A stretch of DNA of 64,000 nt from Olivibacter sp. SDN3 (lineage in GTDB: Bacteria > Bacteroidota > Bacteroidia > Sphingobacteriales > Sphingobacteriaceae): the NCBI RefSeq assembly GCF_014334135.1, contig NZ_CP060497.1, forward strand, positions 4,898,001-4,962,000, in the 5' to 3' direction. The translations under genes were made by a program, and so were the position numbers. The notes beneath the pieces were generated by a model, which saw nothing but the letters and a program-made list of their open reading frames with translations, was not told the origin of the DNA and did no database searches. Within the stretch, counting starts at the first letter, position 1, and each line of letters opens with the position of its first letter. Below are positions 5,798-9,703 of the stretch, in pieces.

Positions 5798-6700
5798 TTA
5801 ACTAAGTTTTTCTCCAACTTTTTCAAGGAGTATTTTTGATTTCTTGATACCCTCTTCTTCACTTAAATTGTCACCTTCATATTCGATACCAACGTATCCT
5901 TTATATCCGGCATCTTTTACAATTTTAAGCATGCGGAGATAATCTACTACGGTATCATTTCCCTCATCATCAAAATCATGTGTTTTCGCGCTTACTCCCT
6001 TGGCAAAAGGCATTAAATCGGTTACGCCCTGATACCTATCGTACTCATAGAAATTACCAAAATCCGGTAAGCTGCCACAATTCTTTTTACTTACTTCCTT
6101 TAACACCGAACTTAACCATTGGCCATCTGAAGATACACCACCATGGTTTTCTACAATCACATTAATTTTATGCTTGGACGCAAATTCACTTAACGACCCT
6201 AAACCATCAACAGCGGCTGCTTTTACTTCTTCAGGTGTTCCTTTACCGGCAGCGTTTACGCGAATGGCATGACATCCCAAAAATTTAGCTGCTTCTACCC
6301 ACTTATAATGATTTTCCACCGCTTTTTTTCTTTCCGAGTCGTCTGGTGCGCCTAGGTTTCCCTCACCATCAATCATGATCAGCACATTTTTAACACCATT
6401 GTCTTTCGAGCGCTTCAACATTTCCTGTAAATAGGTTTTATCGTTCGCCTTGTCCTTAAAAAATTGGTTTACATATTCTACACCAAAAATGCCATATTTT
6501 TTTGCAGCAGTTTCGGCAAAATCGAGATTGTCCAGTTCTTTTGCAAAAAGCGTTTTGTGCAATGACCATTGTGCCAATGAAATATCAAAAAACATTTTTT
6601 TGCCAGATGAAGCAAAGGCTTCCAAAGGTAAATTTGGTAAAACAGAAAGCCCCAAAGCACCCATACCCAGCTGCTTTAAAAATTCACGTCTATTGTTCAT
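5798..6700 (-). CDS. Exported sugar phosphate isomerase/epimerase-like (TIM-barrel) protein
   Basis: 300 residues. The N-terminus starts with a twin-arginine-like signal ([18 protein letters not shown]) ending near ASSGKK, so export by the Tat route is likely. The mature part matches the xylose isomerase-like TIM-barrel/hydroxypyruvate isomerase superfamily: the VENHGG segment, the GNF...YDRYQG segment and a C-terminal [10 protein letters not shown], which supply typical acidic and His metal ligands. Such proteins isomerise or epimerise sugars or inositols, but the substrate cannot be assigned here. It appears to be a single-gene unit. Confidence 0.82.
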
Positions 6701-6922
6701 GTTGTAAGGTTTTATAGGAAGGCAATTTAGGAAAAAAATTGAATATATAAAGGAGTTAACCTATTTTTTGGTTGGCAGTTTTGGTAAAACCAGTATGCAC
6801 ACGCTTTGATCTTGGAACGGGCTAACCTAAAAGTTACACCGCATCTTTATACATAGCGTATTTGTTTAATAATAATGTAAGCGCTGTTGTTTATCGTCTA
6901 AGTACATGAATGAGAAAATAGC

Positions 6923-6955
6923 GCCGGTAGGAGTATTACGATTGCTCCTACCGGC
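6923..6955 (-). terminator. Terminator of the FN3-protein gene
   Basis: Perfect 11-bp arms GCCGGTAGGAG / CTCCTACCGGC with an 11-nt loop, beginning only a few bases after the stop codon of the gene that ends at 6961. GCTATTTTC follows on the minus strand. Confidence 0.75.
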
Positions 6956-6960
6956 AGGAC

Positions 6961-7593
6961 TTATCGCGCCATTCGACTAATAGGTTCGCTCCAATCGCTC
7001 ACTCCTTTACCGTTCCGCGACCTCACCTTAACACGACAGATTATACCTGGCTCCAAGGGTGCCAGCACATTGTTACGCGACGACGTACTGGTGAACAATT
7101 GCTCCCAATCAGGCTCGCCCTGTTCATCCAATGAAGTAGCGTACCTATACTCATACTCCCAGGCACCCTTAACGGCGTTAAAATCTAATCGCAGTTGCCC
7201 GCTTTGCGATGTGTCCATTAATCGTAAACGCTCCGGGATAGCTGGGATGTCTACCGACGTTCTCGATTGCCGTACAGGAAAACCCGAGCTTAAAATAACG
7301 TGTAAAGCGCCATCCGCTACCGTGTTGACGTAAAAGGCTAATTTTTTCAGTTCGCCTTCCAAAATTTGGCGACTATGATTCTTTTCACTGGTATTCAACG
7401 GGCTGCCCCTTCTGGTGCTCGCCAGCTTTTCACGGAAGTCGTCTACCAATATTTGCACATCCTCCAAGGCCGGTACCGGCGTTCCAAAATGCGGATTGTC
7501 TGCCATTGCAGTAATCACCGTAACACCTAATGTAGCGAGTGCATCGTCTGAAAATCTTTTAAAACCTAAATTTGCTTGTCTATTGTTTTGCAT
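6961..7593 (-). CDS. Hypothetical protein with C-terminal fibronectin type III domain
   Basis: 210 residues without a signal peptide or membrane segment. The first 100 residues look helical (LVDDFREKLAST, LEGELKKLAFYVNTVADG). Residues about 115-207 form an FN3-like fold (IPAIPERLRL...DFNAVKGAWEYEYRYATS...PLEPGIICRVKVRSRNGKGVSDWSEPI). The family is known from Bacteroidota but I know of no function for it. A short ORF (7580-7717) overlaps the start by 14 bp and may be translationally coupled. A hairpin terminator follows at once. Confidence 0.75.
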   Translation of the reverse strand: MQNNRQANLGFKRFSDDALATLGVTVITAMADNPHFGTPVPALEDVQILVDDFREKLASTRRGSPLNTSEKNHSRQILEGELKKLAFYVNTVADGALHVILSSGFPVRQSRTSVDIPAIPERLRLMDTSQSGQLRLDFNAVKGAWEYEYRYATSLDEQGEPDWEQLFTSTSSRNNVLAPLEPGIICRVKVRSRNGKGVSDWSEPISRMAR

Positions 7594-7717
7594 AATTTCT
7601 AAAATTTAAAATTTGTGAAAAATTCTGTTGGTTGATCGTCTCATTGATCGTCACCGTAAAGTGCAGCATAACTGCACGATCTTCAAATGAAATACCGCCA
7701 GTTAAGGAGGTCGACAT
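7580..7717 (-). CDS. Possible small ORF of 45 aa upstream of the FN3 gene
   Basis: An ATG at 7715-7717 opens a 45-codon frame (MSTSLTGGISFEDRAVML...) that stops at 7580-7582, overlapping the first codons of the FN3 gene. The leader just before the ATG is purine-rich (GAAAAAAAGAAG), a usual ribosome-binding context in Bacteroidota. It has no hydrophobic signal and no recognised family. The overlap suggests a leader or coupled partner, but a chance ORF is not excluded. Confidence 0.4.
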   Translation of the reverse strand: MSTSLTGGISFEDRAVMLHFTVTINETINQQNFSQILNFRNYAKQ

Positions 7718-7821
7718 CGGCTTCTTTTTTTCTTTTTCATATACTTTTATAGTTTTCAATCTTACATCACTCCTTGATGTATGTTACAAAGGTTAGTAGA
7801 TATAGAAAAAGGCATGTCCGA

Positions 7822-7857
7822 TTTTGACGCTTTTGTCGTTTTTTGACGCTTTTGTCG
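7822..7857. repeat. Tandem direct repeat, 19-bp period
   Basis: TTTTGACGCTTTTGTCG occurs twice, at 7822-7838 and 7841-7857, in perfect copy. It lies about 100 bp upstream of the small ORF and FN3 gene, which are read away from it, so it could be a regulator-binding site. No regulator is known. Confidence 0.6.
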
Positions 7858-7944
7858 CGTTTGTTACAAAAAGAAATCGATAAACCTCGCCGAAAACCAT
7901 TGTTTTTTCTGTATTACCTGGCAGCAAATCTGTATGGGTTCATG

Positions 7945-8454
7945 ATGAAGTTAATTGACATTAACGCATTGCTAATTGACTTAACCTTGAAGTAGATCGT
8001 CTTCATATTGGATCCAATCGAATGGAACATCAAGATGATTGTTGCTAAGATCAAGTCTATTGCATTGCATAAAAAACCTGTTGTCTTTCATCTATTCCCA
8101 GTTGGACCGCTTCTATTTTCAATTGACCTGAAGTTCATGCTAATTGGATTGAAGTTCAAGTCAACTAGCATGGAAGCAAAAACAATCAACTTGAATATCT
8201 AGCTCAATGGGATAGCTTTCAAGTAGTATTAATTAGCTGTTGTGTTATTTGAATTTGCGATCAAGTTGATTGGTTAAAAGTCGTTGCCGCTTGACTTAAC
8301 AATAAAATCAACAGGTATTAAGGCCAAGAAAATCGGAAATGCTATAAAGTCAATCGACATCACCTTCAAGTTGATCAACTTAATCTTGAAATCAATAGAC
8401 TTCACGATAAAGACAAGTGGAAATATGATAACGATGATCAGGTTAGACACATAA
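7945..8454. repeat. Degenerate 21-bp-period array, 24 units; possibly a decayed heptapeptide-repeat gene
   Basis: From ATG 7945 to TAA 8452-8454 the sequence splits into 24 units of exactly 21 bp with no insertion or deletion. The unit consensus is roughly wTm-AAG-TyA-ATy-Gry-wTn-Amn. Read on plus it gives seven-residue units such as IKSIDIT, FKLINLI, LKSIDFT, with five in-frame stops (TAG at 7993, TAG at 8200, TAG and TAA in unit 14, TAA in unit 16). Because the unit is quasi-palindromic (GTCAATTGAC-like core), the minus strand also reads as VKSIDFK-type repeats, with four stops. It is therefore either a broken repeat-protein gene or non-coding repeat DNA. A strong hairpin terminator follows at 8458. 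No homologue is recognised. Confidence 0.75.
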
Positions 8455-8457
8455 AAA

Positions 8458-8484
8458 AGCCACGGCTTTCATTGCGCCGTGGCT
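8458..8484. terminator. Hairpin terminator after the 21-bp array
   Basis: AGCCACGGC / GCCGTGGCT form a 9-bp perfect stem with a 9-nt loop, flanked by an A-run on the left and ATTTATT on the right. It can act on either strand, between the array and the small gene at 8544. Confidence 0.75.
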
Positions 8485-8511
8485 ATTTATTAAAACATGA
8501 AATTTTCACTT

Positions 8512-8530
8512 CGAGCGGAGTGTCCGCTCG
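8512..8530 (-). terminator. Short hairpin downstream of the small HTH-like gene
   Basis: CGAGCGGA-GTG-TCCGCTCG is a perfect 8-bp inverted repeat 13 bp past the stop of the gene ending at 8544. The loop is only 3 nt and no clear T-run follows, so termination is plausible only. Confidence 0.45.
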
Positions 8531-8543
8531 CCATTACTAAGCG

Positions 8544-8756
8544 TTACTTCCTTCGCAGCTTCAGCACCCGTGCAATTTCCGCTACAGATGTATCCATGTA
8601 GTTTGAAACATGGTAGATCGTCACCGGCTGCCAACTTTTTAAAGCGAAAGTATCTCTAATCTGTTGCATCATCCGTTGGCAAGTGCGCATACTCTTGCCA
8701 GTTAACCGCTGCAAATCCGAAGTAAACATAAATAAACGTTGTAAAGCTATCTCCAT
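8544..8756 (-). CDS. Small HTH-like hypothetical protein, 70 aa
   Basis: A 70-residue basic protein. Residues 12-35 (TSDLQRLTGKSMRTCQRM) look like a helix-turn-helix similar to small Bacteroidota proteins with a LTG-x-S-x-RT-x-QR-x-M pattern, followed by QPVTIYHVSNYMDTSVAEI, a second possible helical pair. It may bind DNA, but the function is unknown. A promoter-like pair upstream (TATTTTTG at 8778-8785 and TTTG at 8809-8812, minus strand) supports expression. The overlapping 116-aa frame on the same strand looks spurious. Confidence 0.55.
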   Translation of the reverse strand: MEIALQRLFMFTSDLQRLTGKSMRTCQRMMQQIRDTFALKSWQPVTIYHVSNYMDTSVAEIARVLKLRRK

Positions 8757-8777
8757 ATCTTCCTTTTATTGCTAAAG

Positions 8778-8812
8778 CAAAAATAGCAACGTAAAAAGAA
8801 ACTTTAGACAAA
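8778..8812 (-). promoter_or_regulatory. Candidate promoter of the small HTH-like gene
   Basis: The -7 box TATTTTTG (8778-8785) and -33 box TTTG (8809-8812), read on minus, are 23 nt apart. This is slightly longer than the usual 19-21 nt of Bacteroidota promoters. Confidence 0.4.
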
Positions 8813-8974
8813 AAACCTAATAAAATGCAGCTTCTGTTGAATTTTTGAAAATTTTTCAATGCGTGTAAAACGTGCTTTACAAATTTGTTAACACCGATGT
8901 GTAGCTGTCTTATGAAAATGACAATGTTTTGAAAAAGCTTTTGTAACAAAGGGTGCTTCACGATAGGGTCTTCC

Positions 8975-9703
8975 CTAAACATTTCCCCAACCGTGCGCCA
9001 AAACATCCGCCAGATGCATCGTTTTCATCGTCAAATTATGTTTATCGATATATGCCTGTAAATGGAGTAAACAGGAAGCGTCGGTAGAGATAATGTATTC
9101 TGCACCTGCGTCCAGTGCGTTATTTACTTTCTGCTCAGCCATCGCACTGGATATACCACTAAACTTCACCGAAAAGGTACCACCAAAGCCACAACACATA
9201 TCGGTATCGCGCATCTCCATCAGTTCCAGTCCATCCACGTTTTTTAGCAAGAGCCTTGGTTCTTCTTTAATTCGACACTCCCGAAGTGCCGAACAGGAAT
9301 CGTGATAAACCGCTTTTCCCTCCAGTTCAGCGCCAAAATAATCCTTCTTTAAAATATTAACTAAAAAATCAGATAACTCATAAATGCTACCTTGTATTGA
9401 TCGGCATCGATTATGTACCATAGAATTAGTAAACAAATCGTTATAGCCATTTTTAATCATACCCGTACAGGAGGCCGAAGGTGATACGATATATTTTGAA
9501 TCGGCAAAATCTTCTAGAAATTTAGTTCCAATATCTTTGGCCTCATCCCAATAACCTGCGTTGTAAGCAGGCTGCCCGCAACAGGTTTGCTCAACGTTAT
9601 ATTGTACGCTACACCCCGCCTTCTCTAAAACTTTCACCGTATTAAAAGCAGTTGTTGGGTACAATTGGTCTATAAAACAAGGTATAAATAAATTAACATT
9701 CAT
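8975..9703 (-). CDS. LutA/YkgE-family (Fe-S)-binding protein
   Basis: About 242 residues from MNVNLFIP (ATG at 9701-9703; an upstream in-frame ATG at 9721 adds six residues unlike the family). It carries two CCG-type cysteine motifs, CCGQPAYNAG and CCGFGGTFSVKF, each in a cysteine-rich domain as in LutA/GlcF subunits that bind a 4Fe-4S cluster. In LutABC systems the protein helps oxidise L-lactate to pyruvate. Here no lutB or lutC lies beside it; instead it follows an MFS transporter by about 50 bp, so the two may be co-transcribed. Confidence 0.85.
   Translation of the reverse strand: MNVNLFIPCFIDQLYPTTAFNTVKVLEKAGCSVQYNVEQTCCGQPAYNAGYWDEAKDIGTKFLEDFADSKYIVSPSASCTGMIKNGYNDLFTNSMVHNRCRSIQGSIYELSDFLVNILKKDYFGAELEGKAVYHDSCSALRECRIKEEPRLLLKNVDGLELMEMRDTDMCCGFGGTFSVKFSGISSAMAEQKVNNALDAGAEYIISTDASCLLHLQAYIDKHNLTMKTMHLADVLAHGWGNV

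What the first reader, a model, noticed from the sequence alone, without database searches (positions are those of the whole stretch)
7945..8454. A 510-bp array with an exact 21-bp period and no insertion or deletion
24 consecutive units keep a seven-codon rhythm (IKSID.., FKLIN.., LKSIDF..) over 504 bp although units are quite diverged. Five stops on plus and four on minus exclude an intact gene, yet indel-free periodicity suggests past coding constraint or active repeat turnover. The unit is quasi-palindromic, so both strands read as similar heptapeptides. It ends in a stop codon and a strong terminator as a gene would.
Basis: partly seen in the sequence, partly recalled or inferred. Interest (0 to 1): 0.7.

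Follow-up and report, generated by a model that had tools for sequence, protein, structure and literature searches.

The report
Strict 21-bp DNA array beside FN3 gene
A non-coding stretch of about 24 mirror-symmetric 21-base units, exactly two DNA turns apart, sits in front of one small gene in many bacteria of a large phylum; its sequence differs between copies but its spacing does not, and what reads it is unknown.

Summary
In detail: window 7945-8454 has an indel-free 21-bp period far beyond chance. It is not a dying protein gene. Arrays of the same kind lie 5' of the neighbouring FN3-domain gene in 93 of 128 distinct FN3 loci of the family, and at 7 of 7 loci elsewhere in the phylum that match the FN3 profile over its length, plus one partial match. 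None of 100 control chunks of the host genome reaches the threshold. Unit sequence differs between loci, is dyad-symmetric in 71 of 93 arrays, takes substitutions but few indels outside multiples of 21, and shows no coding signal or RNA-hairpin strand bias. The consensus is weakly maintained. A small HTH gene often lies beside it, but HTH similarity predicts a separate 10-bp-phased promoter operator rather than the array. Best reading: a helically phased lattice of protein-binding sites in cis to the FN3 promoter, reader unknown, working like plasmid iterons or centromere arrays but not meeting their membership tests. My paper searches found no description.

The parts
7945..8454 (.). 21-bp array, 24 units, core AAAGTCAATTGACTTT, dyad-symmetric, non-coding
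   Evidence: arrays of the same kind at 93 of 128 FN3 loci
6961..7593 (-). FN3 gene, 210 aa: N-terminal helical part plus C-terminal fibronectin type III domain; the gene that arrays accompany
   Evidence: Pfam fn3 E 0.006, below its cut-off; PDB FN3 sequences match profile positions 109-206; AlphaFold pLDDT 93.1; the 50 Foldseek hits shown are FN3 domains
8544..8756 (-). small HTH-type protein gene (70 aa), before the array in the FN3 direction
   Evidence: 60% identical to L031 and L032; no Pfam or NCBIfam family at its cut-off, so HTH is inferred from sequence pattern and from the place of HTH genes in relatives; structure not run
7822..7864 (.). promoter-side short repeats (GACAAAAGCGTCAAAA type, 9-10 bp), shared with L031 and L032; proposed HTH operator
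8459..8483 (-). terminator-like hairpin GCCACGGC..GCCGTGGC with T-run on the minus strand, between HTH gene and array
   Evidence: sequence, (read by eye; the terminator scan was not run)
7594..7944 (-). spacer between array and FN3 start; holds the short repeats; no exact TAnnTTTG box here, although 53 of 91 spacers have one

Best explanation
The array is a cis-acting DNA element: about 24 tandem, dyad-symmetric sites spaced exactly two helical turns (21 bp), so that a symmetric DNA-binding protein can load side by side on one face of the helix and form a continuous nucleoprotein filament in front of the promoter of the FN3 gene. Shown here: strict period, dyad symmetry at DNA level, few out-of-phase indels, weak maintenance of the consensus, no coding signal, linkage to the FN3 gene in several families of the phylum, and a separate HTH-linked operator and, in 53 of 91 loci, a -7 box between array and gene. 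Inferred: that a protein binds it, that binding sets expression of the FN3 gene (silencing until a threshold, or activation), and that each locus has its own reader. The adjacent HTH is disfavoured; the FN3 protein is the one product known to be shared by the array loci, which were found through it.
For: 93 of 128 distinct FN3 loci of the family have an array 5' of FN3 (median 227 bp away), one more has it 3'; 0 of 100 control chunks reach the threshold, and in the same loci 5 of 1310 scores at other periods 16-26 do (from 3 loci plus L125). Period 21 is the top of periods 12-39 in 92 of 94. Outside the family 7 of 7 loci with a profile-wide FN3 match have arrays, and of 19 partial matches L252 (209-aa frame) has one, L253 has a coding repeat and 17 have none. 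Palindromicity p about 0.01 or less in 71 of 93; G.T and A.C mismatches at mirrored positions are equally affected (excess 0.006 +/- 0.005, 48 of 93 positive), i.e. symmetric on both strands. Non-21 indels 4 per 527 substitutions in arrays v 13 per 225 in spacers, p 1.2e-4. Polarised substitutions toward consensus 33 v 19.9 expected, away 88 v 104.6. Olivibacter consensuses change symmetrically: AAAGTCAATTGACTTT, AAAGCCGATCGGCTTT, AAACTTAATTAAGTTT. TAnnTTTG between array and gene in 53 of 91 (11 on the other strand, 10 expected).
Against: No reader was found. Array similarity fades quickly: below 80% FN3 identity most arrays are unlike. L031 and L032 have the same HTH over 73 shared residues and 92% alike FN3, yet different consensuses (similarity 0.62). 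22 of 93 arrays miss the palindromicity level. A/T content peaks at 7 bp, not 10.5, which a simple one-dimer-per-two-turns picture does not predict. 34 of 128 FN3 loci lack a detected array, so FN3 does not need it. Array bases change at least as fast as spacer bases (0.119 v 0.091). One pair not, L098/L096, has 2 single-base indels for 76 substitutions. One of six triples (L127/L146/L172) shows no change toward consensus (1.2 expected).
Confidence: 0.5

Rival explanations
1. Satellite-like tandem repeat: periodically rebuilt from a palindromic seed at a fixed hot spot 5' of FN3 and then decaying, with little function.
For: Fast substitution (0.119 per site); star-like units with no neighbour effect, as after one burst; arrays replaced between FN3 relatives; weak 21-bp peaks at several loci below threshold; the consensus-rate ratio 2.30 is what neutral decay would also give (my arithmetic).
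Against: Same period in several families; few out-of-phase indels; substitutions toward consensus enriched; dyad symmetry; linkage to one gene.
Confidence: 0.2
2. Structured non-coding RNA: the transcribed array folds into a run of hairpins.
For: Folding z -4.7 and -3.3 (window strands), -4.2 (L031), -5.1 (L034); in L242 and L243 the array ends 59 and 42 bp from the FN3 start and could be transcribed; L097 shows local complementarity beyond column frequencies (z 3.4).
Against: In most of the 30 arrays tested complementarity at mirrored positions does not exceed column frequencies; no G.U over A.C asymmetry; no Rfam family at gathering score in 12 loci; a palindromic repeat folds well whatever its role; where a TAnnTTTG box is found it lies between array and gene.
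Confidence: 0.12
3. The array is the operator array of the adjacent small HTH protein.
For: An HTH homologue lies upstream in 65 of 93 array loci, its stop a median 50 bp before the array; array similarity is high when HTH identity is 0.7 or more (29 pairs).
Against: 28 of 93 array loci have no detected HTH homologue (some have short flanks). In the six distant loci printed no small HTH gene was noticed before the array, though L243 has a LuxR-type response-regulator-like ORF (by eye). Of 24 window-type HTH loci with no FN3 within the fetched 1.5-kb flanks, none has a 21-bp array (L217 scores 59.5 at 21 but 92.5 at 10). For pairs at FN3 identity 0.5-0.85 the DNA-binding domain predicts the promoter operator (rho 0.54, partial 0.52) better than the array (0.27, partial 0.15). 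L158 and L159 share recognition helix and operator but not array.
Confidence: 0.1
4. Remnant of a heptad-repeat protein gene.
For: Period divisible by three, few indels, best frames with 4-5 stops.
Against: Stop-free frames 27 of 93 v 24.2 expected; no consistent codon-position bias.
Confidence: 0.02
5. Intrinsically curved or flexible DNA phased at 10.5 bp.
For: 21 bp is two helical turns.
Against: Share of A/T power at 10.5 bp is 0.069, below the null 0.099; the peak is at 7 bp (0.216).
Confidence: 0.04

Closest known systems
pSM19035 parS heptad arrays (omega/ParB, RHH)
   Same: Contiguous short repeats where contiguity matters, 7-bp units, left-handed spiral of dimers (PMC9499535, abstract and passages seen); here A/T content also peaks at 7 bp within 21
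   Different: Plasmid partition with ParA; here chromosomal, 21-bp period, sequence differing between loci; no partition ATPase noticed among the genes of nine cassettes read
Plasmid iterons (recalled)
   Same: Tandem repeats about two turns apart beside a gene, locus-specific sequence
   Different: No rep gene noticed, no plasmid: two FN3 proteins found no match in 72,556 plasmids
ParR/parC and TubR/tubC centromeres (recalled)
   Same: Repeat array beside a small DNA-binding protein gene
   Different: No filament motor gene noticed among the cassette genes read; the HTH tracks another element
Phage lysis modules
   Same: 26 of 46 FN3 loci have a gene of the cluster named DUF5675 from one member, 12 of 46 one of the cluster named CHAP from two members; FN3 proteins weakly match PHROG tail families
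   Different: No match of two FN3 proteins in 50,697 phages, none in viral contigs; no lysis-type gene noticed next to the window's FN3 gene

Membership tests
Protein-coding repeat gene | Open frame or codon-biased substitutions | tested here: not met
Plasmid iteron origin | Tandem sites about two turns apart | tested here: met
Plasmid iteron origin | Adjacent rep gene on a plasmid | tested here: not met
   The window lies on a single 6.1-Mb contig; neighbours read; no plasmid hit
Partition centromere (parS/parC/tubC) | Cognate small DNA-binding protein whose specificity tracks the array | tested here: not met
   The adjacent HTH tracks the promoter operator rather than the array; other readers untested
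Partition centromere (parS/parC/tubC) | Motor ATPase/GTPase in the locus | tested here: inconclusive
   None noticed among ORFs printed for nine loci; not searched by profile
Operator array of the adjacent HTH | Array consensus follows HTH recognition residues independently of descent | tested here: not met
Structured RNA | Covariation or G.U asymmetry on the transcribed strand | tested here: not met
   (exception L097)
Known Rfam family | Gathering-score match | tested here: not met
   12 loci; window 6600-9700, three hits, all below gathering
Protein-bound DNA lattice | Physical binding in 21-bp register | not testable with these tools
   needs footprinting or DAP-seq

The most novel reading that the evidence does not exclude
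The array is read by the FN3 locus's own protein: FN3 subunits nucleate on the 21-bp lattice (three 7-bp contacts per two turns) and grow a DNA-guided fibre, which, where lysis-type enzymes and small membrane proteins follow FN3, is later released by them. That would be a new class of programmed nucleoprotein assembly, with several self-specific copies in some genomes.
Probability: 0.1. Interest if true: 0.92.

Novelty: new variant of a known kind. Interest (0 to 1): 0.7.

Why it matters
A non-coding element whose spacing is kept across a phylum while its sequence is free escapes normal homology searches; TRF and blastn-type searches did not show it here. It marks a gene family of unknown role, present in up to at least seven copies per genome (where seven is the scoring cap), that is often joined to lysis-type genes, and gives a direct handle (array, operator, promoter, gene) for finding out what that family does. 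Sets of arrays with diverging symmetric consensuses are also a natural data set for how DNA recognition evolves.

Tried and rejected
Array as operator of the HTH: favoured for a time, dropped. Repeat protein. RNA hairpins: looked positive, searches did not support it. Curved DNA. A promoter in each unit: TAnnTTTG is depleted in arrays, 11 sense and 3 antisense v 23.2 expected. (rate out of consensus 0.074 v 0.170) was first taken as selection, but neutral decay from a perfect array predicts a similar ratio (my own arithmetic), so it counts for nothing; one search replaced it. DNA-level search for the array in relatives and plasmids gave nothing convincing. Paper searches with no relevant hit in the listings; one search was aimed at pSM19035. 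Fold search of the FN3 model in the viral library did not run.

Limits: the FN3 loci are the best-scoring and many of the further listed hits, not a random draw; each genome was scored on at most 7 candidates there; loci from related genomes are not independent. The array threshold 8 was written into the script and lies above the control maximum 7.1; control chunks were 4 kb and FN3 regions up to 4.7 kb. L252 was counted beside the profile-wide matches only after its array was seen. The pair L100/L064 lies in one genome, at contig ends. In one search the outgroup of one triple differs by 46%. HTH classes were made by rough patterns, 9 loci unclassed. In one search the operator was taken as the 60 bp of the spacer with the strongest 10-bp repeat. 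The structure of the window's HTH could not be run.

Full report
Observation. The 510 bp at 7945-8454 have lag-21 identity 0.460 against 0.274 +/- 0.020 in 2000 dinucleotide shuffles, and high identity at lags 42 to 126; no other period from 5 to 60 in the 64-kb window gives as strong a signal. The units stand in register without a gap, consensus ATAAAGTCAATTGACTTTAAG. The best frames hold 5 stops on plus and 4 on minus, the other four 10 to 24.

Surroundings. On the minus strand the order is: HTH-type gene (8544-8756), hairpin with T-run (8459-8483, by eye), array, short 9-10 bp repeats (7822-7864), FN3 gene (6961-7593). Nearest named relatives of the FN3 gene are Olivibacter. The FN3 protein is predicted with confidence (pLDDT 93.1) as four helices plus an FN3 sandwich; solved structures match the FN3 part (best hits shown).

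Arrays follow the FN3 gene. In the first FN3 relatives, arrays of period 21 appeared at the corresponding place with different units. I then took 131 FN3 loci, 128 distinct after removing L051, L062 and L063. With a score threshold of 8 (maximum of 100 control 4-kb chunks from 400 kb of the host genome: 7.1), 93 of 128 have an array 5' of FN3 and one (L106) 3' of it; the array ends a median 227 bp from FN3. Scores of 8 or more at other periods 16-26 in the same loci are 5 of 1310: L132 at 16 and 24, L080 at 23, L105 at 24, L125 at 18. Period 21 is the top of periods 12-39 in 92 of 94; several loci below threshold also peak weakly at 21 in the same place. Outside the family, the profiles found 7 loci, in 6 genomes, that match over the whole profile (L238 to L243 and L248; some fetched twice as L244-L247 and L263); 7 of 7 have 21-bp arrays, scores 9.8 to 83.6. 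Of 19 partial matches, L252 (C-terminal match in a 209-aa frame) also has one, L253's signal lies beside a match in a 1,847-residue reading frame, and 17 have none. One FN3 orthologue, in O. domesticus (L030), shows no array, HTH homologue or short repeats.

What the arrays are not. A frame free of stops exists in 27 of 93 arrays against 24.2 expected after resampling columns. Between orthologous arrays, substitutions fall evenly over codon positions except in one of five non-independent pairs (p 0.035). Of 30 arrays (29 distinct) most show no covariation of mirrored positions beyond column frequencies; L097 (z 3.4) and L079 (2.1) are above, L089 and L106 strongly below. G.T and A.C mismatches at mirrored positions are equally affected relative to background. 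No Rfam family reaches its gathering score. A/T content shows no 10.5-bp peak; it peaks at 7 bp (101 arrays). Promoter-like -7 boxes are depleted in the arrays.

What the arrays are. Symmetry about a dyad reaches p of about 0.01 or less in 71 of 93 arrays; 160 control segments folded at 21 have 95th percentile z 2.0 and maximum 3.2, against a median of 4.0 for the arrays. In 13 close pairs the arrays took 527 substitutions, 4 indels that are not multiples of 21 and 2 that are; the spacers took 225 substitutions and 13 indels (Fisher p 1.2e-4). Two further pairs were left out because their arrays differed by more than 25%; L098/L096, not in this set, has 2 single-base indels for 76 substitutions. 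Units are equally alike near and far (0.471 v 0.470, 81 arrays), although L074, L077, L078 and L091 carry 105-bp and L075 63-bp higher-order repeats. In six triples with an outgroup, 33 changes went toward consensus (19.9 expected) and 88 away (104.6 expected); none of 500 simulations reached 33, but one triple had none toward (1.2 expected). So the consensus is maintained, though weakly, while spacing is guarded more strongly. Consensus similarity is near complete above 85% FN3 identity and mostly lost below 80%, with exceptions such as window and L032 and a group with core GTGATCAC / GGGATCCC.

Who reads them. A small HTH homologue lies upstream in 65 of 93 array loci, a few of them about 1 kb or more away. 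Array similarity is high when HTH identity is high, but then FN3 identity is high too. Between array and FN3 there is another element: repeats phased at 10 bp (mean lag-10 identity 0.341 v about 0.265, 82 loci) followed in 53 of 91 loci by a TAnnTTTG box on the FN3 strand (11 on the other strand, 10 expected), median 84 bp from the start codon; that this is the Bacteroidetes -7 box is recalled. This operator goes with the HTH: for 378 pairs at FN3 identity 0.5-0.85 the DNA-binding domain correlates 0.54 with operator similarity (0.52 after removing FN3 identity) but 0.27 (0.15) with array similarity; for pairs below 0.7, 0 of 300 label permutations reach the operator correlation with the recognition helix and 24 of 300 the array one (55 loci). 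L158 and L159 share recognition helix and operator, but their arrays differ. In the Olivibacter trio the operator is shared while the array consensus drifts, even between L031 and L032 with identical HTH over 73 residues. The HTH therefore most likely acts at the operator, and the array's reader is unknown.

Context of the cassette. In many loci of the large genus g16 (Sphingobacterium by L035, my inference) the genes before the HTH include a histidine kinase with a response regulator (LytTR match below its cut-off), or another regulator; after or before FN3, 26 of 46 loci have a DUF5675-type gene and 12 of 46 a CHAP-type gene, and small membrane proteins are common. This suggests a lysis-type operon, but no such gene was noticed next to the window's FN3 gene, so lysis cannot be the universal role. 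Two FN3 proteins had no match in plasmids or phages and the family profile none in viral contigs.

Mechanism and novelty. I hold a DNA lattice of symmetric sites, two turns apart, bound cooperatively in front of the FN3 promoter, as most likely (0.5). Closest in working are parS heptad arrays of pSM19035, where four or more contiguous repeats are needed (PMC9499535, abstract and passages seen), and plasmid iterons (recalled). Membership in either is not met. Nine paper searches listed no description of such arrays; only titles and abstract starts were seen there, and subscription journals are mostly not held.

Noticed in passing
L217 787-974: Window-type HTH homologue in genome G162, with no FN3 within the fetched flanks, has a strong 10/11-bp tandem array beside it (score 92.5), like an expanded version of the proposed HTH operator.
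   Followed up: no
L030: Olivibacter domesticus keeps a 76% identical FN3 gene without detected array, HTH homologue or short repeats: a natural comparison strain for array function.
   Followed up: partly
L080, 1077-1254 bp after FN3 start: A nearly perfect 23-bp tandem repeat 3' of FN3, while only a weak 21-bp trace remains 5'.
   Followed up: no
L132, -1359 to -1178 from FN3: An 8-bp-based repeat (TTGCGTAT type) further upstream.
   Followed up: no
L074, L077, L078, L091, L075: Arrays with higher-order repeats of 105 bp (5 units) or 63 bp (3 units), i.e. whole-block duplications.
   Followed up: partly
L017 133-777: A coding 21-bp repeat (heptapeptides) in a gene that looks by eye like a pseudouridine synthase; not an FN3 array, but a false positive for lag-21 scans.
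   Followed up: partly
L078, L085, L089, L102 upstream region: An acyltransferase-like gene of about 300 aa (cluster 10, named by eye) precedes the kinase/regulator pair in these four FN3 cassettes.
   Followed up: no
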